Assembly (NCBI RefSeq): GCF_001908275.1
Contig: NZ_CP018620.1
Span: 1,984,001-2,048,000, forward strand
DNA from: Paenibacillus xylanexedens
GTDB taxonomy: Bacteria > Bacillota > Bacilli > Paenibacillales > Paenibacillaceae
Length of the DNA stretch: 64,000 nucleotides
Reading direction: 5' to 3'
In this document: positions 12,917 to 27,901 of the stretch, piece after piece
Layout of the letters: every line of letters begins with the position of its first letter
Numbering within the stretch: position 1 is the first letter of the stretch
The notes under the pieces: generated by a model
Told to the model about the DNA's origin: nothing
What the model saw: only the letters and a program-made list of their open reading frames with translations
Database searches by the model: none
Made by a program: the position numbers and the translations under genes

Positions 12917-13104
12917 TACAAGATACCCAGTCGACTCAACGGCATTCATCTATGCATTAATGTGCAAATATAGTTACCCAGGGATGTTGCCGAACTACCG
13001 GATAACCTCTGAGGAAATGATCCTTCCGTTTGATTCCAATCTTCCTTCCCACTTGTTAAAATTTAGGTACATAAACTAAGGTCAGGTTGGCGGGTGATAA
13101 GGAA

Positions 13105-14289
13105 ATGCAGCGAATCGAGGTACATCCCGATCTATTGGAGGAAAAGGCCCGGTTGGTCCAGCAGAAGAAACAGGAACTGGAGCGAATGGTCAGGGAACTG
13201 GAGAAATCCATTTATATGTTGCAATCCGATTGGTCGGGTGTGACAGGAGAGCGTTTCTTCTGGGATTTTATGCAGGTGAAGGAAGTGTTCCCGACTACAC
13301 TTGGGCTGTTGGACGAAATCCAGAAAGAGTTTACGTTTATCGCAATGAACTTCAGAACAACGGACGGCTCAGGCGAGGTTGCGCTGTACATTCCAGAAGA
13401 ACTAAAGCGAAATTTCGCTGTAGGGCTGCTTGATAAATCAGTAGGAGAAACAATAACGGGAATGGGGCAGACGGCAGAATCTTTCTTCGAGAACCCATTC
13501 AGTACATTAAGCAGTGTGGCATATGCCATGACAGTGGGCAAAGTTGTAGACGTTGGGCGTGGTATTCAGTTTGCATGGGACACCGCTTGGGGTACGGGAA
13601 CGGCGAGATCTGATATAGAGCAATTTGTAGAAGAGCAGAAGAAACAGATCGATGAGAGTGGTGCAGGGTATTACGGTGGGGCGATGACGGGACAGGCCTT
13701 GGCGTATGTTTTGTTTGGCAAGGCATTTCGTTCGAAGGACGACATTGGGTCGGGTGGAGGTAAGAAAGAATCAGAGGGAATTAGCAGTTTAACTAGTGAC
13801 TCAAGGTTAAGAATGGAAGGCAATAAAACAATATACCCTAATCAATTCGGTAATGAGGTATCTTGGACCAAACAAGGTTCTAAAGATATAGATGCTATTA
13901 TTGAGAAGAATTTAAAAAGCTCAAAAGCTGGTGATATTCTAGAGGGTCAAGTAGCACAGACTGTAAAAGGTACAGGAAGATTACAGGGGACTGGAATACA
14001 GTTGAAACTGCAAGATGATACAATAGCAGGGGATATTGACGTGTTAACAGATTCACATCTTATTGAAGTGAAAAAGTCTTTAAGTGCAGTAAGTAAAAAA
14101 CAATTTGATAAATTGACCGATCCATTAAATGAGAAATACTTTAACTACGATAACAAGGAAATAATATATTATATTGAAGATATTACTGTAAATAATAGAA
14201 CCCAAGAAAATCTAGTTAAAATGATTCAGAATAAAGGAATAAAAATAATAAGTTCTGCTAACGAATTAGAGGAGGTCTTGAAGAAGTGA
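13105..14289 (+). CDS. WXG100-headed polymorphic toxin with PD-(D/E)XK-type nuclease domain
   Basis: 394 residues from the ATG at 13105 (GGTGAT 7 nt upstream; this start also lines up with the second toxin at 25314). Residues 1-95 form a WXG100/ESX-like helical hairpin with W43-S44-G45, the export tag of type VII secretion substrates. A middle region leads to a C-terminal nuclease-like domain: GDILEGQVAQ, then D310/D312 in GDIDVL and E321-x-K323 in LIEVKKS, the D...ExK signature of the PD-(D/E)XK fold. It is probably a secreted antibacterial DNase. Base composition becomes AT-rich from about 13780, where the toxin tail starts. No secretion machinery is in the window. The next gene overlaps by 4 bp. 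Confidence 0.8.
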   Translation: MQRIEVHPDLLEEKARLVQQKKQELERMVRELEKSIYMLQSDWSGVTGERFFWDFMQVKEVFPTTLGLLDEIQKEFTFIAMNFRTTDGSGEVALYIPEELKRNFAVGLLDKSVGETITGMGQTAESFFENPFSTLSSVAYAMTVGKVVDVGRGIQFAWDTAWGTGTARSDIEQFVEEQKKQIDESGAGYYGGAMTGQALAYVLFGKAFRSKDDIGSGGGKKESEGISSLTSDSRLRMEGNKTIYPNQFGNEVSWTKQGSKDIDAIIEKNLKSSKAGDILEGQVAQTVKGTGRLQGTGIQLKLQDDTIAGDIDVLTDSHLIEVKKSLSAVSKKQFDKLTDPLNEKYFNYDNKEIIYYIEDITVNNRTQENLVKMIQNKGIKIISSANELEEVLKK

Positions 14290-16229: not shown

Positions 16230-19200
16230 ATGAAACAAGGCATATATGAACAGCTTATCAACACCATCACCAGGCAGGAGATTTCGGCGCTGGACCCGGA
16301 TGTGTATAACATTGGAACCGAGAAGTTGAATGCAGAGGAAGCGCGCAAGCTGCTGTCCACGTATTTGGCGACGGTGACCCGGCGGGCGCTCAAGATTGTG
16401 CGGGAACAGACAGAAGATAAGACAGCAGTGTTGGCACAGATCCGAACGTGTAATGAGATTATTGCTACCCTGAAAGGCACGCTGGGGGAAGAAGAATACA
16501 ACGAATTGCAACTGGATGAGCAGGGGGAAGTGCTGACCCATGTGTACTCCAAGCTGAACAGCATTCGTGCGGTCCGGGATACCAAAATCGTTCGTCCAGA
16601 TACGCCGATCTCCCAGAGCTCTTTGTTCACAGGTGCCAAGTCCGAGCCGAGTATGTTATTGGAGTTGCAAAAGGAGATCATGACCGCCGATCGGATCGAT
16701 TGGCTGGTATCGTTTATCAAATTTAGCGGGCTTCGCCTGCTGCTGGAACAGCTTCAACAGTTCACGGCTAGTGGAGGGAAGCTGCGGATCATCACAACTA
16801 CATACATGGAAGCAACCGACCTTAAGGCCATCACTGAACTTAGCAAACTGCCCAACACGGAAATCCAGATTTCCTATGATACCAAAGTGACTCGGCTACA
16901 CGCCAAAACGTACATTTTCCACCGCGATACCGGATTCACCACAGCCTATGTCGGCTCCTCTAACCTGTCCAACCCGGCGCTGACCAGTGGTATGGAGTGG
17001 AACCTCAAGGTGACGGAGAAAGATTCACTCGATGTGCTGCGCAAGATTGAAGCGACCTTCGAGAGTTACTGGAATGACCGTGAATTTACGCGGTATATGG
17101 CTGAGGATGAAGGCCATGAGGCACAGTTGAAGGCGGCTCTGAATCGTAAAAAAGATCAGTCCAACCACTTTCACCTCGACATCCAGCCTTACGATTATCA
17201 AAAGGAAGTGCTGGAAGAGCTGAACGCCGAGCGTACGCTGTATGGACGAAATCGCAACCTGATCGTCGCCGCCACAGGCGTTGGCAAAACAGTCATCTCT
17301 GCCTTCGACTACAAGCGATTCCGGGCAAGCCATGTGGGAGCTAAGCTGCTTTTTGTCGCCCATCGGGAAGAAATCTTGAAGCAAAGTCGGGACACGTTTC
17401 GGTATATCCTGAAGGATATGAACTTTGGTGAGCTGCATGTCGGGAATTACCGAGCAGAGGCGCTGGATCACTTGTTTGTTAGTATTCAGAGCCTTAACTC
17501 CATGAAGCTGACGGAGATCACTAGCTCAGACTATTACGATTACATCATTGTGGATGAATTCCACCATGCCGCTGCTCCTTCGTACCAGAAGCTGTTGTCC
17601 CACTACGAACCGAAGATTTTGCTAGGACTCACTGCAACGCAGGAACGGATGGATGGCAAAGACATTACCGCCTACTTCGATCATACGATTGCCGCCGAGA
17701 TCCGTCTAACCGATGCCATTGACCGGAAACTACTGAGCCCTTTTCAATATTTTTGCGTCACCGATACTGTCGATCTATCCCAAGTGAAGTGGTCGCGTAA
17801 AGGCTACGACCTGAACGAACTGGAGAAGCTCTATACCCATAACAAAATCCGTGCCAACCAGATCATCCAAAGTCTGAACAAATACGTAACCGATCTGGAC
17901 GATGTGAAGGGGCTTGGTTTCTGTGTAGGGGTGGATCATGCAATGTATATGGCAAAAATATTTAACGAAGCCGGCATTCCATCCATGGCCCTGCATGGCG
18001 GGTCGAGCGAACAGGAGCGTCATTCTGCGAAAGGACAGCTGGTGAACGGGGAACTGCGCATGATCTTTGTCGTTGATCTGTACAATGAGGGCGTGGATAT
18101 CCCTGAGGTGAACACCATCCTGTTCCTGCGTCCTACTGAGAGTCTGACCGTATTCCTGCAACAGTTGGGACGTGGACTCCGGATGGCGGAGGGCAAAGAG
18201 TGCCTGACCGTGCTCGACTTCATCGGACAAGCGCATCAGGAGTACAGGTTCCAGGATAAATTCCGCGCCCTGATCGGCGCTACTAAACATTCTATCTCGT
18301 ATTACGTCGAGAATGGATTTTCGAACTTACCACGCGGCACGTTCATTCAATTGGAAAAGCAAGCGAAGGAATACATCATGCGCAACCTCAAGCAGATGAG
18401 TCGTAATCGCAGAGCGTTGATCCAGAAGCTGCAAACGTTCCAGCAAGACACCGGACTGCCGCTGACCTTGGCTCATTTTGTAGAGCATCACGGGATGACA
18501 CTCTATGAATTCTATGGTGGACGTACGGGGAGAAGGTATTTCCGCGGTATGTTAGCCGAAGCCGGATTAACAGCACCCATCGAGGATGAACACGAGGAAT
18601 ACATCCGCAGACTGCCATCTGTGCTGACGATTAACTCCCGAAGCTGGCTGACGTTCCTGATCGACTTTATTGAAAAAGGGAAAGAAGCAACCACCGCTGA
18701 TGAACAGCGCATGTTGATCATGTTCTATTATACCTTCCATCGGGCTGCGCCCGAGAAGCTAGGACTGAGCAGCATCGAAGAGGGTGTGCAGCGTGTGCTT
18801 TCTTCTGAGGCATTCCGAGCAGAGCTTGTGGATATTTTCAAATATAATTGGGCTCATCTACGATTTGTGGATAAAAGCAATTCGTTCCCGTACACTTGTC
18901 CACTGGATATCCACTGTATGTACTCCATCGACCAAGTGCTCGCCGCCTTCGGTTACTGGAATGCCCAGCAATCACCCGCCTTCCGTGAAGGCGTGAAGTA
19001 TTTTGCAGATGAACAGACCGATATCTTCTTCATTACATTGAACAAATCAGACAAAGATTTCTCTCCATCTACGCTGTACGAGGATTATGCGATCAACGAG
19101 CGTTTATTCCACTGGCAGACACAGAGCCGGGTGTCAGAGCATACAGCTACCGCGCAGCGGTACATCCATCATCGGGAGACGGGCAACCGAATCGTGCTGT

Positions 19201-19367
19201 TCGTGCGGGAGTATAAGGAGGAGCATGGCTATACGTCTCCATTTGTGTTCCTGGGCGAAGCGGATTATGTGAGTCATGAGGGGAACAAACCAATGAGCTT
19301 TGTGTGGCGGTTAAGGGAAGAGATGCCTGCGAAGATGGTAGCGGTGGCGAATAAGTGTATTGTTTGA
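16230..19367 (+). CDS. DUF3427-type superfamily 2 helicase with PLD nuclease-like domain
   Basis: 1045 residues. An N-terminal helical region is followed by a phospholipase-D-like domain with H224-x-K226 (RLHAKTYIF) and GSSNLS. Then comes an SF2 helicase core: Walker A with K353 (ATGVGKT), motif II D442-E-F-H, motif III LTATQERMD, and motif VI QQLGRGLRMAEGK. The long C-terminal part corresponds to DUF3427. Such proteins are predicted to process nucleic acid and are often found near mobile DNA, but their function is not settled. The gene has the GC content of the core genome, unlike the AT-rich island after it. Collinear fragments of a second copy lie at 27.6 and 29.6 kb. Confidence 0.88.
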   Translation: MKQGIYEQLINTITRQEISALDPDVYNIGTEKLNAEEARKLLSTYLATVTRRALKIVREQTEDKTAVLAQIRTCNEIIATLKGTLGEEEYNELQLDEQGEVLTHVYSKLNSIRAVRDTKIVRPDTPISQSSLFTGAKSEPSMLLELQKEIMTADRIDWLVSFIKFSGLRLLLEQLQQFTASGGKLRIITTTYMEATDLKAITELSKLPNTEIQISYDTKVTRLHAKTYIFHRDTGFTTAYVGSSNLSNPALTSGMEWNLKVTEKDSLDVLRKIEATFESYWNDREFTRYMAEDEGHEAQLKAALNRKKDQSNHFHLDIQPYDYQKEVLEELNAERTLYGRNRNLIVAATGVGKTVISAFDYKRFRASHVGAKLLFVAHREEILKQSRDTFRYILKDMNFGELHVGNYRAEALDHLFVSIQSLNSMKLTEITSSDYYDYIIVDEFHHAAAPSYQKLLSHYEPKILLGLTATQERMDGKDITAYFDHTIAAEIRLTDAIDRKLLSPFQYFCVTDTVDLSQVKWSRKGYDLNELEKLYTHNKIRANQIIQSLNKYVTDLDDVKGLGFCVGVDHAMYMAKIFNEAGIPSMALHGGSSEQERHSAKGQLVNGELRMIFVVDLYNEGVDIPEVNTILFLRPTESLTVFLQQLGRGLRMAEGKECLTVLDFIGQAHQEYRFQDKFRALIGATKHSISYYVENGFSNLPRGTFIQLEKQAKEYIMRNLKQMSRNRRALIQKLQTFQQDTGLPLTLAHFVEHHGMTLYEFYGGRTGRRYFRGMLAEAGLTAPIEDEHEEYIRRLPSVLTINSRSWLTFLIDFIEKGKEATTADEQRMLIMFYYTFHRAAPEKLGLSSIEEGVQRVLSSEAFRAELVDIFKYNWAHLRFVDKSNSFPYTCPLDIHCMYSIDQVLAAFGYWNAQQSPAFREGVKYFADEQTDIFFITLNKSDKDFSPSTLYEDYAINERLFHWQTQSRVSEHTATAQRYIHHRETGNRIVLFVREYKEEHGYTSPFVFLGEADYVSHEGNKPMSFVWRLREEMPAKMVAVANKCIV

Positions 19368-19382
19368 GTTTGAAATGAATGG

Positions 19383-19408
19383 ACCTGCTATGTAAAGCAG
19401 GTTTTTTT
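19383..19408 (+). terminator. Intrinsic terminator after the helicase
   Basis: ACCTGCT/AGCAGGT stem with a 6-nt loop followed by seven T. Confidence 0.9.
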
Positions 19409-19915
19409 GTTTGAAATTGTATTTTATAGTGGAAATAAGTGGTTTATTGTTGGATAATGATTCTATGAGCCTAGATACTACCAATACACTGATCTAATAG
19501 ACCTATAATTTTGTTGATTTTATAAGATGATATGAATACGTTACTTTAGATTACACGAGGTTATTCCGATAAGATCAGTTGTATACATCATGATTGCGAT
19601 GAAACTAAAAAAGATAAAAATGTAAGGCCTTTTTATTATTCAAAATAATCTTATGGATAGGAGGCATAGTGAGATTCACGCGAATCGTTATTAATCTTTC
19701 CAAAAGTGCATATTAGCACAGAACATAACGAAACAGTAATTTAACAGGATCAACTGCTATTAACATTACATATAAACAAAGGAATTGCACCAAGAGATAT
19801 GATAAAGCAGATTGAGGATAAACATCCTTCAATCCTTGATGTCGCTGTTAGTGGTTAAGCCTTTTTAGTGTTTATTTAAATAGTACGAAAATTACTTTTT
19901 AGAGGAGTTATTGGA
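19409..19915. other. AT-rich gap with no supported gene
   Basis: About 500 bp with many stops in all frames. The stretch before the TAA at 19856-19858 reads as coding-like sequence (KGIAPRDMIKQIEDKHPSIL) without a start, perhaps the end of a lost gene, possibly a transposase; this is a weak impression. The ParB-like operon promoter should be at the 3' end, but no clear -35/-10 pair stands out. Confidence 0.4.
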
Positions 19916-21535
19916 ATGGAATTATTGAGAGTGAAATTGAGTAATATACTTGTTAATGAGGATAATCCTAGGAATGAACCGCAAGAAAGTGAAGCTGATG
20001 CTATTAAAGTTCTATTTAAGAAGGAAAAAGAGTTATTTAATTTAATGTCTAATATTGCAGAAAAAGGTATAGATAGATCGGAGAGAATAATTCTTACGAA
20101 ATTAGATGGCATGAATGATTATATTGCAATGGATGGAAACAGAAGGGTAACTTGTTTAAAATTGTTGAATTCAAGTGAATTTCTCCCCGCTGATATTAAT
20201 GATCGAGAAAGAATAAAAAAACGAATTGAAAAAATCATCGAAAAATATGATTATAAAAAAACAGTTCATATAGATGCTGTTGTTTATGACATAGATCATG
20301 AAGAAGAAGAAATGTTGGATACAATAAGAAGAAAACACACTGGTGAAAATAAAGGTATTGGAAGAATGAGATGGGATTATACTGCACAAGTGAGATTCAA
20401 GAAGGATGACTTTAAAAAGTTTCTTTCAGGTTACTTGAATAGTATTCTAAAAGTAGAAAGATCTTATACCACAATGGAAAGAATACTCTTGGACAAAAAT
20501 ATGCAATCACGTTTAGGTATTATTGTTCATAAGGATAGACTAGAAGTTGAGAGATTAAATGAGAGTAGCCTCAAAAAGCTATATTATATTTTATATTTGT
20601 TAGATAATAAAAGAATAAGAGTGAAAGATGTATACAGCAAAGAAGATCGTGAATTATTTTACAATAAATTCTTTGTTGATAATGATGAATGGAAGTTTTT
20701 AAAGAGTCCTTATAATAATAATTATCCATACCCAACAGGAACAGAAGATGAAAATAAGCGAGGTAAGGAAGGAGGATCAGGACCAAAAGACGAAAATAAG
20801 CCGGATGACAAAGGACCAAAAGACGAGAATAAGCCGGATGACGAAGGACCAAAAGACGAAAATAAGCCGGATGACGAAGGACCAAAAGACGAAAATAAGC
20901 CGGATGACAAAGGACCAAAAGACGAAAATAAGCCGGATGACGAAGGACCAAAAGACGAGAATAAGCCGGATGACGAAGGACCAAAAGACGAGAACAAGCC
21001 GGGTAACGAAGGTGGATCAGAATCAGAAGACGAAAATGAGCCGGGTAACGAAAATGGTCCAGGGCAAGGAGAACAAAAACTGGTACCTGATTCCAAAGTT
21101 TTATTTCAAGGTATTATATATGAGGGTGATCACCAAGGTATCTGGAGATCCCTATCGGAAATTCATCGTATGAAGTTGCGATACTCTGATAGATATCTTT
21201 TGAGTCTAACCTATCTTTTGAGGACACTAATTGAGTGTACGTTGCAAGAATATTTAGTGAAAAATTCACTTTTTGATAATTGGCATAAACCGAATCAAGA
21301 CCCTTCAATAACTGATTTGATCAGATATAGTGTTCAAAATAATGTCTTTGCTACTACGAATAGAAATTATCAAAGAATAATTGTGTTGGCTGATTCACAA
21401 AAAGATTACGATAGCTTGAACGTTATTGCCCATGGTAAATATAGCTTACCGTCTATAGAAATTTTGAAAATAATTGAAAAGAGATGGTATATTCTTATGA
21501 AGCACATGATTGAAGATTTAAACAAAAAAAACTAA
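19916..21535 (+). CDS. ParB/Srx-like N-terminal domain protein 1, with repeat linker
   Basis: 539 residues; ATG behind AGAGGAG (8 nt). Residues 1-80 match the ParB/Srx N-terminal fold: a short beta start (LLRVKLSNILVNEDNPR) and the nucleotide-site motif DGNRR at 73-77 (compare GERR in ParB CTPases). Residues 80-285 are charged and mostly helical. Seven 11-residue repeats (GPKDENKPDDE type) form a disordered acidic linker at about 289-365. The last 150 residues (YLLRTLIECTLQEYL, DPSITDLI, LNVIAHG) form a domain that also ends the next protein. First gene of a ParB-ParB-methyltransferase unit. Probably a DNA-binding NTPase-like component of a defence or modification system; function inferred. 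Confidence 0.72.
   Translation: MELLRVKLSNILVNEDNPRNEPQESEADAIKVLFKKEKELFNLMSNIAEKGIDRSERIILTKLDGMNDYIAMDGNRRVTCLKLLNSSEFLPADINDRERIKKRIEKIIEKYDYKKTVHIDAVVYDIDHEEEEMLDTIRRKHTGENKGIGRMRWDYTAQVRFKKDDFKKFLSGYLNSILKVERSYTTMERILLDKNMQSRLGIIVHKDRLEVERLNESSLKKLYYILYLLDNKRIRVKDVYSKEDRELFYNKFFVDNDEWKFLKSPYNNNYPYPTGTEDENKRGKEGGSGPKDENKPDDKGPKDENKPDDEGPKDENKPDDEGPKDENKPDDKGPKDENKPDDEGPKDENKPDDEGPKDENKPGNEGGSESEDENEPGNENGPGQGEQKLVPDSKVLFQGIIYEGDHQGIWRSLSEIHRMKLRYSDRYLLSLTYLLRTLIECTLQEYLVKNSLFDNWHKPNQDPSITDLIRYSVQNNVFATTNRNYQRIIVLADSQKDYDSLNVIAHGKYSLPSIEILKIIEKRWYILMKHMIEDLNKKN
20780..21010 (+). repeat. Seven 33-bp tandem repeats
   Basis: In-frame 33-bp units coding GPKDENKPDD(E/K); units differ mainly by GAA/AAA and GAA/GAG/GAC changes, and the last unit ends PGNE. 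They lie in the linker of ParB-like protein 1. Near-identity between units points to recent expansion by slippage or unequal exchange. Confidence 0.9.
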
Positions 21536-21604
21536 ATTAGATATGAAAAAGTAATTATACTCATGTTTTAATAACATAATATGATTAATGAGGGAGAACC
21601 TACA

Positions 21605-23137
21605 TTGAATTATACTTCCGAAAGAATTCCAATACTAAACTTAGTGTTAGACCCGTTAAATCCAAGATTCGTTTCACTCCCTTCTCCAAACGATGAAAGT
21701 ATCAAGAACTACTTGGTACAAAATGAAGATGTAATAACTATTGCAAGAGGTATCAATGAAGATGAAGGATTAATGCCTGGGGAGCGTATTATAGTCTTTA
21801 GAGAGAACGAAAACAATTATATAGTTTTAGAAGGGAATAGACGGATTTGTGCCTGTAAGTTACTTTTGGGACACTTTATTACAGATCGAAAAATACCTTC
21901 TATTTCTGAGACGACTAAAGAAAATATAGAAATTATCAATGTTGATGTTGTGGAGAGTCGGGAGGCTGTACAATCAACTTTGTATAAAAGACACATCAAA
22001 GGAATTCGCAGTTGGCCAACTCAAGCTAAACTTTCATTTTTTGCTAACCGTTATTTGGCTGGGGAAGGTATAGATGAAATTAGCAGGGATACAGGATCTG
22101 CCAAAGGAAAAGTCACAGGATTCATTCAGAATTACAAATTACTACAATATGCGTTGAACCTCCCTCAATGGAGGGAGGTTGAGTTGGACAGTCTAGACCC
22201 AATGGGACTAGATATAAATAGATTCCTAAGAGTATTTAATTCTAATTCCAAGTATTATTCTAATAAAACTGCAAAAAATCTTCTTAAGTTATCGTTTGAT
22301 GAGAATCTTAATCCAATTTCGGAGTATGGTGAAGATATAATGAATCTTGGATTATATTATATAGCTAAAGCAGCCTTCCTTACTAAAGAACTAACTACTA
22401 GAAATCATGTTGATTCAATTTCAGAATTTAATACATTCATGAGGGAAATTAACCCTATAATAGATACTGAAATAACTTCAACTCAAGAAGACTTGAAATT
22501 AGATTATTCAAATAGAACTGAAGATGATCAATTGAAAAATAACAATAACTCCAATATCCTTAGAACAATATCAGGAGTTCAAGAACCTACTGAAATGAAA
22601 AAGGTTACATTAGTAGATATGCCCTTTAAATTGTCCAATCCGAAACCATTTGTATTCTTTGAGTCATTAAAATGGAACGTTTTACAATCAAACGATATTC
22701 AAGATATCGGGCTAATGCAATTAGCAAAGGAAATTCAGAAAATTTCTAAATATAATCATTATGGATGGTACACTATATCAGCTACGCTATTGTTAAGGTC
22801 TTTATTAGAACAAAGTTTGAAATTTTATCTAAGAAAAGTGGGGGAATGGGAATCGTTAACCTCTAACAATCAGGGTAAAGACCCAATGCTTAGTCAATTA
22901 ATTAAATTCTACAAGCATAATAAACGTTACGAGAAATTATTTGTTGAAAAGAAGTATTACTCTGCATTCCTTAACTCGGTCAATGATGAAAATATAACAT
23001 TTCTTGATACGGTAGTACATAATGCTGGAATAATACTTCCTTCTAAGGAAAAATTAGAGTCTATTACTAAAGGGGGAATGTATACTCTTATTGAATACAT
23101 TCTAAATGAAAAAAAATATTGGAAGATAAGTAGGTGA
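21605..23137 (+). CDS. ParB/Srx-like N-terminal domain protein 2
   Basis: 510 residues from the TTG at 21605, chosen because GGGAG lies 8 nt upstream and the protein then begins like its neighbour; an in-frame ATG at 21581 has no ribosome site. It opens with a ParB-like start (ERIPILNLVLDPLNPRF), and EGNRR at about 76-80 replaces the DGNRR of protein 1. A helix-turn-helix-like stretch follows (EGIDEISRDTGSAKGKVTG), as in true ParB proteins. The C-terminal 140 residues (ISATLLLRSLLEQSLKFYL, DPMLSQLI, LDTVVHNAG) parallel protein 1. It ends 7 bp before the methyltransferase start. Low GC suggests acquisition by transfer. Confidence 0.74.
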   Translation: MNYTSERIPILNLVLDPLNPRFVSLPSPNDESIKNYLVQNEDVITIARGINEDEGLMPGERIIVFRENENNYIVLEGNRRICACKLLLGHFITDRKIPSISETTKENIEIINVDVVESREAVQSTLYKRHIKGIRSWPTQAKLSFFANRYLAGEGIDEISRDTGSAKGKVTGFIQNYKLLQYALNLPQWREVELDSLDPMGLDINRFLRVFNSNSKYYSNKTAKNLLKLSFDENLNPISEYGEDIMNLGLYYIAKAAFLTKELTTRNHVDSISEFNTFMREINPIIDTEITSTQEDLKLDYSNRTEDDQLKNNNNSNILRTISGVQEPTEMKKVTLVDMPFKLSNPKPFVFFESLKWNVLQSNDIQDIGLMQLAKEIQKISKYNHYGWYTISATLLLRSLLEQSLKFYLRKVGEWESLTSNNQGKDPMLSQLIKFYKHNKRYEKLFVEKKYYSAFLNSVNDENITFLDTVVHNAGIILPSKEKLESITKGGMYTLIEYILNEKKYWKISR

Positions 23138-23144
23138 CAGTAAA

Positions 23145-24026
23145 TTGAAAATTCAAAAAAGTCCGTTGCGATATCCTGGTAGCAAAAGTGATCTAAGTCC
23201 CTATGTAGAAAAAGTTATTCACAACAACGACTTAAATGGTTGTCACCTGATAGAGCCCTTCGCAGGAGGGGCATCAATTTCTTTAACGCTTTTACAGAAA
23301 GGAATTGTAGGTAAAGTAACATTACTAGAGTTTGATCCTTTGGTTTATTGTTTTTGGGAAAGTGTCTTTAAATATACAGATCAACTTTGTGAGATGATCG
23401 AAGAAACGCCTATAACGATTGGAGTATGGGAAAGATTTCAAATATATAAAGGTATAGATATCCCGTTGAAAAATAACATACTGGAACTTGGATTTGCGGG
23501 TTTGTTTCTTAATAGAACTAGTTTCTCTGGGATTTTAAAAGGTGGACCCCTTGGGGGGAAAGAACAGTTAAGCACTTATAAAATTGATTGCCGATTTAAT
23601 AAACAGAAGATTATCGAAACAATTAAGTTCATTTCTTTATTTAGTGATAGAGTTAATGTGAAATGGGGTAATTCGCTAAAATATTTGAGTAATCTGAAAA
23701 AAAAAACATCCCAAGAAAAGACCTTTCTATATGTTGATCCCCCCTACTATGACAAAGGTAAGTCATTGTATAGGAAATATTTCACAGAAAGGGATCATAA
23801 AGCACTCTACAGAAGATTGACATCTTTACAATATCCTTGGCTTTTAAGTTATGATGATTGTCCATTTATTACTTATCTGTATTCTCATTCTAAAACTGAT
23901 TTAAAAAAACAAAATTTATTTTTTGACTATTCTGCAGGTGGTAGTAAAAAAAAGCAAGAAATATTAATCTCTAACCTGGAGATTCCTCCTATAGCACATG
24001 TTAAAAATGAATCAATTATTATTTGA
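23145..24026 (+). CDS. Dam-type (D12 class) DNA adenine N6-methyltransferase
   Basis: 293 residues from a TTG behind AGGTGA. The N-terminal RYPGSKS and PFAGGASIS (SAM-binding motif I, F39-A-G-G) and the catalytic D198-P-P-Y are in the order typical of alpha-class adenine methyltransferases such as Dam. It transfers a methyl group from SAM to adenine N6 in DNA. The target site cannot be read from sequence. It is the third gene of the ParB-like unit, where it would mark self DNA; no separate restriction nuclease of a known type lies beside it. AT-rich like its partners. Confidence 0.88.
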   Translation: MKIQKSPLRYPGSKSDLSPYVEKVIHNNDLNGCHLIEPFAGGASISLTLLQKGIVGKVTLLEFDPLVYCFWESVFKYTDQLCEMIEETPITIGVWERFQIYKGIDIPLKNNILELGFAGLFLNRTSFSGILKGGPLGGKEQLSTYKIDCRFNKQKIIETIKFISLFSDRVNVKWGNSLKYLSNLKKKTSQEKTFLYVDPPYYDKGKSLYRKYFTERDHKALYRRLTSLQYPWLLSYDDCPFITYLYSHSKTDLKKQNLFFDYSAGGSKKKQEILISNLEIPPIAHVKNESIII

Positions 24027-24065
24027 ATATTTTTAGAATTAAATAAATCATGATATGTATTACGA

Positions 24066-24098
24066 AGAGCAAAGTAAAGGTTTAGTTTACTTTGCTCT
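24066..24098. terminator. Hairpin between methyltransferase and XRE regulator genes
   Basis: Perfect 13-bp stem (24066-24078 with 24086-24098) and a 7-nt loop; it includes the stop codon of the minus-strand regulator. No long T-run follows, so termination efficiency is uncertain. Confidence 0.55.
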
Positions 24099-24473
24099 AT
24101 TACTGTTATGTGATGAATTCGTGGTTGAATCTAACCCTTTAATAATTTCACGTACGACATTTCTTGCTAGATCAATACTATAGAATTCAGAATTCCTTAG
24201 CATACTCACAATATCCTGAATTACAGCCTCCGACTCGTTGATCTCCATATCTTCATTAACATAAGCGAACAACTGCGATATATTTACCTCCAGGGCTTCA
24301 GCGATTTTAGCCAAGTTAACCAAAGATACATTCTTTTCCCCACGTTCAACTTGTCCGATGTATGTAAAATGAAATCCACCTTTTTCTCCAAGTGCCTCCT
24401 GGGATAGTCCCTTCTCTTTCCTTAAAACCTTGATTCGAGCGCCGACTAAATTTAAAATTTCTCTGTCTTCCAC
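24087..24473 (-). CDS. XRE-family regulator resembling restriction-modification controller (C) proteins
   Basis: 128 residues from the GTG at 24473, chosen because AGGGGG lies 8 nt upstream; a GTG at 24482 touches that site. Residues about 8-65 are a Cro/CI helix-turn-helix: GARIKVLRKEKGLSQEALG, then FTYIGQVERGEKNVSLVNLAKIA. The GLSQE..., YIG.(V/I)ERG..N(V/I)SL and LAKIA pattern is that of controller proteins that time expression in restriction-modification systems. The C-terminal 60 residues are an acidic helical extension. Convergent with the methyltransferase and divergent from the HEPN-like gene, with a palindrome between. Confidence 0.85.
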   Translation of the reverse strand: MEDREILNLVGARIKVLRKEKGLSQEALGEKGGFHFTYIGQVERGEKNVSLVNLAKIAEALEVNISQLFAYVNEDMEINESEAVIQDIVSMLRNSEFYSIDLARNVVREIIKGLDSTTNSSHNSNRAK

Positions 24474-24540
24474 GATACGCACCCCCTCTATGTAAAAGTG
24501 TAGACAAGATTTAGGGGGCTAAACATGACTATTTGAATCG

Positions 24541-24561
24541 TATAATTTTTGTTAAATTATA
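24541..24561. promoter_or_regulatory. Palindromic candidate operator between divergent genes
   Basis: TATAATTT - TTGTT - AAATTATA is a perfect 8-bp inverted repeat. It offers a TATAAT -10-like box in both directions and lies between the XRE regulator and the HEPN-like gene. It could be the regulator's binding site or overlapping promoters. A second TATAAT is at 24583-24588, just before the HEPN-like gene. Confidence 0.45.
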
Positions 24562-24617
24562 TCTTTGGGTATGTTTTTATTGTATAATACTGGTATTAAC
24601 TCTTTGGAGGGATGACA

Positions 24618-25139
24618 ATGGCAAGAAATTGGTCCATAACCGAAGCACATTGTAATCACCTAGTAGATTTCACCCCACGTTCGCAAGACCATGATATCTC
24701 CACACAACCTAGGTCCAAACATATTCCTGCTTACCACATGATACATACTACAATCATGGAATATCACCAACATGCTAAGTATCATCTCAAACTTGCGGCC
24801 ATCATGTGTAAACACAATCAGTTTAAAGCCTGCCTAATTCTATGTGATTGGGCTCTAGCCTCCATGATTAAGGCACTTTATATCCATAAGTATCATTCAG
24901 TTCATCCACCCAAGGAACTCACTATGAACGAAATCTTGCCTCTAGTGCATACGGACACTGAACCTGGATTGGATATCGCTTTGTTCATCGGCACGATGCA
25001 ACATATGTCATCTTTAGAGGAACGCCAAGAGGATCAATATTTAGACCTTGATAACATCGAAAAGCTCCTTCAACGAACGGAAGACATTTTGGAGGAGTTA
25101 GCCACTCGATTGAATGATAATTCAACAAAGTTTTTCTGA
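24618..25139 (+). CDS. HEPN-like domain protein
   Basis: 173 residues from the ATG at 24618 (GGAGG 7 nt upstream; an ATG at 24612 is too close). It is helical, with the pattern of the HEPN fold: YHQHAKYHLKLAAIMCKHNQFKACLILCDWALASMIKAL, then ELTMNEILPLV, then a closing helix DNIEKLLQRTEDILEEL. HEPN proteins are either RNases (R-x4-6-H) or substrate-binding partners of minimal nucleotidyltransferases. I see no clear catalytic R-x4-6-H, and no nucleotidyltransferase follows. Its place beside the regulator and methyltransferase unit suggests a part in the same system. Fold call is moderate. Confidence 0.6.
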   Translation: MARNWSITEAHCNHLVDFTPRSQDHDISTQPRSKHIPAYHMIHTTIMEYHQHAKYHLKLAAIMCKHNQFKACLILCDWALASMIKALYIHKYHSVHPPKELTMNEILPLVHTDTEPGLDIALFIGTMQHMSSLEERQEDQYLDLDNIEKLLQRTEDILEELATRLNDNSTKFF

Positions 25140-25313
25140 TATAAGGCGTGTCATGATCATCTGGAGGTTCCTTTCACAGGAATGGGACTGGAGGATTATA
25201 AGTACTGAAACCTATTTATTTGGGGAAAGGGAAAATCAGGATAATGGGTGGATGTATTTGCAACAAACTTCTGCTAACATTGTAAAATCCTAATTTTAAT
25301 GGCGGAGAATGAT

Positions 25314-26429
25314 ATGAGTACAATTAAAGTAACACCAGAGCAACTACTCCATGTATCCAGGCAGATTGAGCAGGGCAGGCAGCAGTTGGAAGGTATACGT
25401 AATGACCTGACTGCACGGATCGGCTTCATCCAGTCTCAGTGGGCGGGAGCAACGCAGGAACGATTTTTCTATGATTTTCAGCAGTCACGTCCTGTACTGG
25501 ATCGAGCACTGGAAAGTATGGTACAGTCCTCTCAGGATCTAATGGGGATTGCCGAGAGATTCGACCAAGCAGATCAGGAACAGGTGAGCTTGGGAGCCGT
25601 TGCTGGACAGATTGCTGCCCATACATTGATGAACCATAATACAGGTAACCCAGAAGAGCAACGACGAATGGTATATAATCCTTTGTTTGGAGTTAACATG
25701 CCTGCCAGTGAAGCAGAGGATGGGATGCCAGGGCAAAAGGAGTTTGTTAAGTATTGGGAACAGGGTGGCACCTATGAAGAAATGAGAGCTGGACCGAAGC
25801 AACCGGAGTCTGGCGGTGGGGATATATATGATGAACAGATTAGTGCATTTAAGGAAGGTCATCATCCCGTAACTGGAGAATCCATACCTGCATGGCAAGC
25901 AGCAGTTTCTATTGGAGGTTTACAGACTGCTAAGCTCGTGTTGGCTTTTACTGGAATGTATAATAGGGGTTATAAGGTTCCGAAAGAAGGATTAGGATTC
26001 CCAAAAGGTATGATCGGTGGAAGAATTACAGTAAGCAATGAAAGAATTAACCATGCTTCACTTGGGGATTTCAATTCTAAAAATAGATTGATCAATGGTG
26101 GTCACGGTCAAGATAATATTAATTACTTACTTAAAAATAAGATCCCATTTAACATTACTAAAGAATATGAAAACGGTGTACGAGTTGGTAATATACCAAA
26201 CCACAAAAACAAAGCAAAGCGAAGTGGAGAGGGACAAACATGGTTCCCTAAGGAGTGGACATCGGAAGACATCAAAAAGTCAGGTGAGCATGTAGCAAAT
26301 CTGCCTGAGAATAGAGTTAAGGGTGACGGTGAATGGATGTTTGGAAACTATAATAACGTTAGAGTAGGAGTGATCAAGAACGATGGACAGATCGGAACAA
26401 TTACTCCAGATAACTCAAGACAACCGTAA
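25314..26429 (+). CDS. WXG100-headed polymorphic toxin with EndoU nuclease domain
   Basis: 371 residues from the ATG at 25314 (GGAG 6 nt upstream); an ATG at 25299 lacks a site. Residues 1-95 are a WXG100 helical hairpin with W43-A44-G45, at the same position as in the first toxin. A PT-TG-like linker (GHHPVTGESIPAWQ) leads to a C-terminal EndoU-type domain: H247 (NHASLGDF), H264 in GGHGQDN, GVRVGNIP, a K-rich loop and GQTWFPKEW, then GVIKNDGQIGTITP. EndoU toxins are RNases that attack tRNA or other RNA in rival cells. It is a probable type VII secretion substrate. The toxin tail is AT-richer than its head. Confidence 0.87.
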   Translation: MSTIKVTPEQLLHVSRQIEQGRQQLEGIRNDLTARIGFIQSQWAGATQERFFYDFQQSRPVLDRALESMVQSSQDLMGIAERFDQADQEQVSLGAVAGQIAAHTLMNHNTGNPEEQRRMVYNPLFGVNMPASEAEDGMPGQKEFVKYWEQGGTYEEMRAGPKQPESGGGDIYDEQISAFKEGHHPVTGESIPAWQAAVSIGGLQTAKLVLAFTGMYNRGYKVPKEGLGFPKGMIGGRITVSNERINHASLGDFNSKNRLINGGHGQDNINYLLKNKIPFNITKEYENGVRVGNIPNHKNKAKRSGEGQTWFPKEWTSEDIKKSGEHVANLPENRVKGDGEWMFGNYNNVRVGVIKNDGQIGTITPDNSRQP

Positions 26430-26959: not shown

Positions 26960-27606
26960 TGAGAGTTCAGCTTAAAGATACATTAGCATTACAAACCAAT
27001 TTATCATCTGTTCGAAAATATATCGTATTTGAAATAGAAGCTGCTCCTTCAGGAGATACGTATTACAGGATTGAAAATGATGCTAATCGGGTTGTTCCTT
27101 ATGATTCGTCACTATTTAATGTAGTTTCGGATAAGCTAAATGGTGACTGGACTATCTTAGATAAGCCTAATCAATCATCAGCCAGATTGCCAAGAGAGAT
27201 TGCTTACATGACATTTTGGGAAGATTTTTACAATGATGAACCCAAGGCTCTACGGGCGTTTAATCAAGCTAAGGCTAGATTATATCTTGAAGAGTTAGAG
27301 GATACCGAAATCCAAAATATTCTGGAGAGTAACAACGAGGAAGAGATTTACCTTGTCTTAAATACGTTAATCAGGACGAAGTGTGACACATTTACGCACG
27401 AAATGATCCAGTTTGCCAAAAAGAGGCTGGAAGAAAATCGTTATCCAGAGGACAATATATTATTGGCTACATTCCAATATTTGAGTTTGTTTCAAGAAGA
27501 ACATATCAATGAATTCTTTGTATACTACTTGACCAACATAGAACTTGGAAATGATGAATTAACAGAGATCGTGAGTAATTACTTTGCATCATCACAGATA
27601 TGGTGA
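26959..27606 (+). CDS. Hypothetical protein, possible immunity protein
   Basis: 215 residues from the second of two adjacent ATGs (GGAG 7 nt upstream). A short beta-rich N-terminus (YIVFEIEAAPSGDTYYRIEND) is followed by an all-helical body with HEAT-like helix pairs (PKALRAFNQAKARLYLEELE, EEEIYLVLNTLIRT, LLATFQYLSLFQEEH). No signal peptide. It is the third small gene downstream of the EndoU toxin, so it may be an orphan immunity gene. The family is not recognised. Confidence 0.6.
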   Translation: MRVQLKDTLALQTNLSSVRKYIVFEIEAAPSGDTYYRIENDANRVVPYDSSLFNVVSDKLNGDWTILDKPNQSSARLPREIAYMTFWEDFYNDEPKALRAFNQAKARLYLEELEDTEIQNILESNNEEEIYLVLNTLIRTKCDTFTHEMIQFAKKRLEENRYPEDNILLATFQYLSLFQEEHINEFFVYYLTNIELGNDELTEIVSNYFASSQIW

Positions 27607-27639
27607 GTGGATGGGGCAAACCTTAGAGAATATCATCTT

Positions 27640-27901
27640 TGATTTTAAGAAAAAACAACTACTGAGATGGTTACGCTTTTGCTCGTCGATCCGTCAGCTT
27701 GATGCGGGTGACCTGGAGGTTGTGTTGACAGTGGGTCTGTTCAATGAGGGTACGGATATTCCGCGTGTGGACACGCAACTATTAGTACGTCCAACAGAGT
27801 CACTCACCGTGTTCACCCAGCAGGTATGGCGTGGTCTGCGGCTGGCGGAAGGCAAATCTCATAGTGTGCTGTACATGCTGGAGCGAGGTGAAGCCCACTA
27901 G
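27640..27901 (+). pseudogene. Remnant of a DUF3427-type helicase (motifs V-VI)
   Basis: LFNEGTDIPRVDTQLLVRPTESLTVF and WRGLRLAEGKSHSVL match the helicase C-terminal motifs of the intact gene at 16230-19367 (LYNEGVDIPEVNTILFLRPTESL, GRGLRMAEGK), but the rest of the helicase is missing before and after. The GC content jumps up here relative to the AT-rich toxin genes. A clear decayed paralogue. Confidence 0.82.

What the first reader, a model, noticed from the sequence alone, without database searches (positions are those of the whole stretch)
19916..25139. Candidate undescribed system: two ParB-like proteins, a Dam-type methyltransferase, a C-protein-like regulator and a HEPN-like protein
Seen: three genes on one strand with 69-bp and 7-bp gaps, coding two different proteins with ParB/Srx-like starts (DGNRR and EGNRR) and an adenine methyltransferase with FAGG and DPPY. 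A convergent controller-like XRE gene and a divergent HEPN-like gene follow. All are AT-rich compared with the flanking genes and lie between two toxin modules. Known: DNA modification plus a ParB-like or DGQHR-type NTPase sensor occurs in Dnd and Ssp defence, and C proteins time restriction-modification expression. Inference: the methyltransferase marks self DNA, the ParB-like pair reads unmodified DNA and acts through the shared C-terminal domain.
Basis: partly seen in the sequence, partly recalled or inferred. Interest (0 to 1): 0.82.

Follow-up and report, generated by a model that had tools for sequence, protein, structure and literature searches.

The report
Two-sensor PD-lambda-5 phage defence operon
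A bacterium carries a known kind of anti-phage system (PD-lambda-5: a DNA methyltransferase plus a ParB-like protein that seems to end in an RNase-like HEPN domain), but in an unusual form with two different ParB-like proteins beside one methyltransferase, in a site where related bacteria keep other defence-type genes.

Summary
The three-gene core is real: two ParB-like genes (A1, A2) and an adenine methyltransferase (B), intact, on one strand. It is not undescribed: all three match PADLOC's PD-Lambda-5 models, a system validated in E. coli (PMC9519451). The neighbouring XRE and HEPN-like genes do not belong: they occur in 56 and 55 of 75 genus genomes, A genes in 2 of 75. The core is cargo of a variable site that holds other defence-type genes in five of six relatives tested. 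Unusual is two A genes for one B: of 103 loci with A beside B, only the window has two intact full-length A genes. They belong to two deep A classes; B groups with partners of A2's class. Models suggest a ParB-CTPase-like N-terminus and a HEPN-like C-terminus in both; the HEPN match is the weaker, and its usual R-x4-6-H motif is missing. Likely mechanism, inferred: B marks self DNA; A proteins gather on unmarked DNA, bring HEPN-like domains together and stop the infected cell. New variant of a known kind.

The parts
19916..21535 (+). A1: PD-lambda-5 A protein, short class (no ParB helix-turn-helix seen), 539 aa; ParB-CTPase-like N-terminus, repeat linker, HEPN-like C-terminus
   Evidence: PDLC03994 E 5.7e-82 over residues 5-532; model and structural matches; spacing class
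20779..21012 (+). 33-bp tandem repeat, 7.1 copies, coding the GPKDENKPDD(E) linker between the two domains of A1
   Evidence: low confidence (pLDDT under 50) in the model
21605..23137 (+). A2: PD-lambda-5 A protein, long class (with KorB/ParB-like helix-turn-helix region), about 510 aa from TTG 21605 (518 aa from ATG 21581)
   Evidence: PDLC04013 E 5.5e-25, phrog_9592 E 4.2e-54 over residues 12-508; model and matches; start
23145..24026 (+). B: D12-class N6-adenine DNA methyltransferase, PD-lambda-5 B
   Evidence: PDLC04018 E 6.4e-91; Pfam MethyltransfD12 E 9.9e-16; motifs conserved in 12 aligned relatives
24087..24482 (-). XRE-family regulator; flank of the variable site, not part of the system
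   Evidence: 56 of 75 genus genomes at E up to 1e-20; divergent to the HEPN-like gene in 30 of 32 fetched loci
24612..25139 (+). HEPN-like gene; flank of the variable site, not part of the system
   Evidence: 55 of 75 genus genomes at E up to 1e-5; Pfam HEPN 19.1 bits, below cut-off
16230..19367 (+). PLD-ResIII-DUF3427 helicase (type IV restriction-like); other flank of the variable site
   Evidence: long matches in seven of eight relatives

Best explanation
The locus is a composite PD-lambda-5 anti-phage system: a complete long-class pair (A2-B) with a second, short-class A protein (A1) in front of it, the two A proteins sharing one methyltransferase. Shown by sequence comparison and structure prediction: family membership of all three genes; a ParB-CTPase-like N-terminal fold in both A proteins; a C-terminal domain whose best matches are HEPN proteins; alignment to KorB through the helix-turn-helix region in A2 only; different ancestry of A1 and A2; B grouping with B genes that partner long-class A; location as cargo in a variable defence site. 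Inferred: B methylates adenine in a motif on host DNA. A proteins, switched by a nucleotide (CTP, or ATP/GTP as in some relatives of the fold), load on the unmethylated motif on incoming DNA, accumulate along it like ParB clamps and bring their HEPN-like domains together, which then cut RNA and stop the infected cell. A1 would add a second way of sensing or a second effector set under the same self-mark. Step confidence: PD-lambda-5 membership about 0.95; two-domain ParB/HEPN build about 0.75 (lowered from 0.85 on re-reading the weak Foldseek values for the HEPN part); methylation-guarded sensing about 0.6; HEPN-driven abortive outcome about 0.4; A1 working with A2 and B about 0.5.
Confidence: 0.58

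Rival explanations
1. A1 is an orphan relic: an older PD-lambda-5 (A1-B') lost its B' when an A2-B pair landed beside it, and only A2-B is a working system.
For: A1's four closest kin (L034-L037) are A1-B pairs with their own B lineage; the double A was not found elsewhere.
Against: A1 is an intact 539-aa frame that keeps the invariant residues, and shares strand, tight spacing and base composition with A2-B. If A1 were an active effector without a protecting methyltransferase it should be toxic, so an intact A1 suggests that B covers it (inference).
Confidence: 0.3
2. A1 and A2 form a hetero-complex: A2 brings the site-specific helix-turn-helix, and A1, which lacks it, serves as a second HEPN partner.
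For: Only A2 aligns with KorB through the HTH region (202 against 118 residues); HEPN proteins such as Csm6 and HepT act as dimers (recalled).
Against: Short-class A proteins are the single A beside B in 58 of 85 classed pairs, so they do not need a long-class partner there.
Confidence: 0.25
3. A conventional restriction-modification system in which the A proteins are DNA nucleases cutting unmethylated sites (ParB/Srx nickase), with no RNase step.
For: DNase activity has been reported for ParB/Srx proteins (passages); the canonical HEPN motif is missing in 103 of 105.
Against: Both A proteins carry a C-terminal domain with an invariant histidine whose best structural matches are HEPN proteins, which a simple DNA cutter would not need.
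Confidence: 0.22
4. One reading: the C-protein-like XRE times expression and the separate HEPN-like protein is the effector.
For: Adjacency only; the XRE matches Control_protein models at E 2.6e-19.
Against: XRE in 56 of 75 and HEPN-like gene in 55 of 75 genus genomes, A in 2 of 75; they keep a divergent 129-142 bp arrangement in 30 of 32 fetched loci and flank other genes or almost none.
Confidence: 0.03

Closest known systems
PD-lambda-5 (Vassallo et al. 2022, PMC9519451; PADLOC PD-Lambda-5_A and _B)
   Same: A and B families, same strand, adjacent; defence setting; A-B pairs also on viral contigs
   Different: Two A genes of different deep classes for one B; 97 of 103 loci with A beside B have one A-matching ORF, and of the other six only the window has two full-length A genes
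ParB-CTPase-fold proteins (ParB, Noc, KorB); survey PMC12704722 (passages read)
   Same: Predicted fold, GxxR P motif, and in A2 the helix-turn-helix region
   Different: C-terminal HEPN-like domain instead of the ParB dimerisation domain; N in place of the E of GERR (recalled). The search listing counts no 'hepn' in that paper and 'pd-lambda' was not found in its main text
ParB-HEPN fusions and ParB + methylase + HEPN operons noted by Anantharaman et al. 2013 (PMC3710099, passages read)
   Same: The combination of ParB fold, HEPN and DNA methylase was noted there (Table 1: Saro_3948; MAE_28990)
   Different: I could not test whether Saro_3948 is an A protein; two fused proteins per methylase are not described in the passages read
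Ssp/Dnd systems (DndB, SspE) and GmrSD (DUF262)
   Same: ParB/Srx-fold protein linked to modified DNA (passages)
   Different: Adenine methyltransferase here; no phosphorothioation gene or HNH domain was among the family hits of the core

Membership tests
PD-lambda-5 | A gene matching PD-Lambda-5_A | tested here: met
   A1 E 5.7e-82 nearly full length; A2 E 5.5e-25 over its N-terminus and phrog_9592 E 4.2e-54 over residues 12-508
PD-lambda-5 | B gene matching PD-Lambda-5_B | tested here: met
   E 6.4e-91 over residues 1-280
PD-lambda-5 | A and B adjacent on one strand | tested here: met
   A2-B gap 7 bp
PD-lambda-5 | Protects against phage | not testable with these tools
   shown for the E. 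coli system only
ParB-CTPase fold | Fold of the N-terminal domain | tested here: met
ParB-CTPase fold | P motif GxxR (Box II) | tested here: met
   GNRR, 99-100% at each position in 105 A proteins
ParB-CTPase fold | Nucleotide binding and clamp closing | not testable with these tools
   PMC12704722 reports that sequence does not predict the nucleotide
Canonical ParB/KorB DNA clamp | Central helix-turn-helix | tested here: inconclusive
   A2 aligns to KorB over 202 residues including this part, rmsd 4.5; A1 aligns over 118 only and is short class
HEPN superfamily | HEPN fold | tested here: inconclusive
HEPN superfamily, RNase-active | R-x4-6-H motif | tested here: not met
   2 of 105 at the invariant H; an R lies in an earlier helix in 94%. 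HEPN families lacking the R are described in PMC3710099
C protein of restriction-modification systems | Small HTH protein of the C family | tested here: inconclusive
   Control_protein E 2.6e-19, but general HTH families match as well
C protein of restriction-modification systems | Inherited with the methyltransferase operon | tested here: not met
   56 of 75 genus genomes have an XRE match, 2 of 75 have A

The most novel reading that the evidence does not exclude
PD-lambda-5 works as a methylation-gated ParB clamp: A proteins load on a motif that B methylates on self DNA, spread over unmethylated phage DNA in a nucleotide-switched way, and switch on HEPN-like domains by crowding. This locus is a two-sensor version in which a site-binding long-class A (A2) and a short-class A without helix-turn-helix (A1) answer to one methyltransferase, so that phages escaping one sensor meet the other.
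Probability: 0.28. Interest if true: 0.75.

Novelty: new variant of a known kind. Interest (0 to 1): 0.45.

Why it matters
Eleven papers of the library hold the name PD-lambda-5; in the passages that I read of four of them there are protection data and a one-line RM+Abi guess but no mechanism. A ParB-CTPase plus HEPN-like build gives a concrete, testable one and would tie ParB clamps to phage immunity. The division of A proteins into two deep classes, with B genes apparently re-associating between them (10 changes on the B tree), and a locus holding one of each, offers a natural experiment for separating sensing from self-marking.

Tried and rejected
Five-gene system: rejected. C-protein role of the XRE: not supported. 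A wider A-A-B architecture: looked for in 186 records and in 57 loci from an A2-clade scan; not found. Six of the 186 had two or more A-matching ORFs beside B: L040, L042, L120 and L163 are one A in pieces (their hits cover successive parts of the model); L076 is A-B-A' in which A' matches only the ParB part; the sixth is the window. Scans of the viral collection with A1 and A2 alone, and of the genome collection with B alone, found no relative. Sequence searches of the PDB with A1, A2 and the A profile gave nothing or weak hits without bearing. Pfam on 30 A proteins gave only weak hits, ParB_N in 2 of 30 among them.

Rows dropped: 5 of 93 A-B pairs with near-identical B before the trees; three A proteins under 420 aa (L071, L114, L130) have no spacing class. 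Loci overlap in part, as some contigs were fetched twice (for example L158 and L258). The A2-A1-B distance test and the clade test use quick trees.
Full report
OBSERVATION. One search confirms five ORFs at the stated places. A1 (19916-21535) and A2 (21581 or, more likely, TTG 21605 to 23137) carry the DGNRR and EGNRR motifs; B (23145-24026) carries EPFAGGA and DPPY. GC is 0.331, 0.322 and 0.322 for A1, A2 and B, against 0.503 for the upstream helicase, 0.384 for XRE, 0.407 for the HEPN-like gene and 0.446 for the window.

WHAT THE CORE IS. Pfam recognises only the D12 methyltransferase among the three. PADLOC names all three: A1 is PD-Lambda-5_A (PDLC03994, E 5.7e-82, residues 5-532 of 539), A2 is PD-Lambda-5_A (PDLC04013, E 5.5e-25, N-terminal part) and B is PD-Lambda-5_B (PDLC04018, E 6.4e-91). 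A2 matches phrog_9592 over residues 12-508 (E 4.2e-54). PD-lambda-5 was found by functional selection in E. [quoted passage not shown] passages, section 7). Eleven papers of the library hold the name; I read passages of four, which gave no mechanism, and not the other seven.

WHAT DOES NOT BELONG. The HEPN-like gene has a match in 55 of 75 genus genomes (E up to 1e-5) and the XRE in 56 of 75 (E up to 1e-20). Of the 32 loci fetched by these two searches (20 and 12, from 24 genomes by the handles listed, the window's own included), 30 hold both genes, divergent and 129-142 bp apart. A genes occur in 2 of the 75 genomes (E up to 1e-8): this one, with two, and G704, with one A-B pair. Blastn of eight genus relatives, taken from the best HEPN and XRE matches, shows XRE-HEPN on one side in all eight and a long stretch of the helicase on the other side in seven; L253 keeps only a 267-bp match near the helicase end. 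In L254 only 343 bp lie between the aligned flanks; the other seven hold different genes. PADLOC on ten cargo proteins from six of these loci (L251 was not tested) finds Lamassu-type proteins in L253 (LmuB E 4.9e-174), type II methyltransferases in L255 and L256, Mrr-like similarity in L257 and AbiO/Nhi-like similarity in L250; the L252 protein matched nothing. So the core looks like cargo of a defence hotspot.

A profile of A found one A-matching ORF on B's strand within 4.5 kb in 97, none in 77, two or more in 6; 6 had no B hit. The window is the only one of the six with two full-length A genes (see Tried and rejected). A further 57 viral loci from an A2-clade scan gave 48 with one A and one B (in many of them B lies on the other strand or about 1 kb away), 9 with one A and no B hit, none with two A. 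In the phylum 9 of 398 genomes match the A profile (E up to 1e-10); in the order, A2 matched 4 of 296 (E up to 1e-5, this genome included).

ANCESTRY. Trees of 88 A-B pairs plus the window (5 of 93 pairs dropped as near-identical) put A1 in a clade with L034-L037 (support 100), whose loci are simple A-B pairs, and A2 in a clade with L158, L102, L207, L058, L138 and L139 (99), also with one A each. B groups with the B genes of L058, L138 and L139 (99); forcing it to join the B genes of A1's kin costs 60 log-likelihood units, p-AU 0.011. Tree distances of A and B agree overall (Mantel rho 0.373, 0 of 999 shuffles); distances from B follow those from A2 (rho 0.186, reached by 186 of 4999 shuffles) but not those from A1 (rho -0.054, 3420 of 4999). 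Against a simple story, A2's nearest A relative, L158, has a B of another lineage, and 30 of 86 inner branches of the B tree are weak. The distance between two conserved residues (W145 and R217 of A2) is bimodal: under 60 in 73 and 66 or more in 32 of 105 A proteins. The classes change once on the A tree (87 tips; shuffled mean 23.8) and ten times on the B tree (85 tips; shuffled mean 23.2, minimum 17); weak branches may inflate the ten. A1 is short class (36), A2 long class (72). So the locus holds one A of each deep class, and B most likely came with A2.

MECHANISM. ParB proteins close around DNA on binding CTP and spread from a site (PMC12704722, passages); members of the fold can also bind ATP or GTP, and sequence does not tell which. 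With a methyltransferase beside it, the simplest reading is that B hides the loading site on self DNA, and that A loads on unmethylated DNA and triggers its C-terminal domain by crowding. This is inference. HEPN-ParB fusions, and an operon of HEPN, ParB and methylase, were noted in 2013 (PMC3710099, passages). Searches listed no paper whose title or passages, so far as I read them, describe a methylation-gated ParB-HEPN system; not every listed paper was opened, and preprints and most subscription journals are not in that library.

VERDICT. A known system in an unusual two-A form, in what looks like a defence hotspot of the genus; the mechanism is proposed, not shown.

Noticed in passing
window 19368-24136, and L250-L257: A variable site between a PLD/SF2 helicase gene and a divergent XRE/HEPN-like pair holds different genes in seven of eight genus relatives, defence-type in five of the six tested, and is nearly empty in L254: a likely genus defence hotspot.
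   Followed up: partly
L169:4265-5956, L038:7533-9329, L043:5027-6655, L040:12990-14513: The B methyltransferase family also sits beside an OLD/PtuA/AriA-like ATPase of about 510-600 aa: 51 of 180 loci with B, of which 40 have no A hit; L043 has A-ATPase-B, L040 and L042 have A-B-ATPase.
   Followed up: partly
L053, L054, L055, L266-L272 and others: A shorter ParB-like protein (about 370-400 aa, no HEPN part), then a gene of about 1 kb, then in many loci a methyltransferase on the opposite strand; in P2-like phage Wphi it is gp98-gp96-Mth. The middle protein of L053, L055 and L076 had no Pfam or PADLOC match.
   Followed up: partly
L076:422-4583: A-B-A'-X in a Prevotellaceae MAG: a PD-lambda-5 pair followed by a ParB-only protein and an unknown 308-aa protein.
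   Followed up: partly
L035:6934-10154 and L036:8891-11998: A1-type A-B pairs sit next to a gene that looks like rlmH (recognised from recall, not scanned), the known insertion site of SCC elements (recalled).
   Followed up: no
L330:587-8833: In G704 an A-B pair lies just after ORFs that look like Tn7-like transposition genes, including a TniQ/TnsD-like one (from recall, not scanned).
   Followed up: no
L040:9074-12096: An A gene in pieces with a transposase-like ORF (from recall) on the opposite strand inside it; described only.
   Followed up: no
window 25299-26429 and 13087-14286: WXG100 proteins on both sides of the site, the first listed with a C-terminal EndoU nuclease domain.
   Followed up: no
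window 27584-27901: A short ORF with a weak match to the C-terminal part of a helicase (Helicase_C E 0.0062, 17.2 bits, below the cut-off), perhaps a fragment of a relative of the flanking helicase.
   Followed up: no
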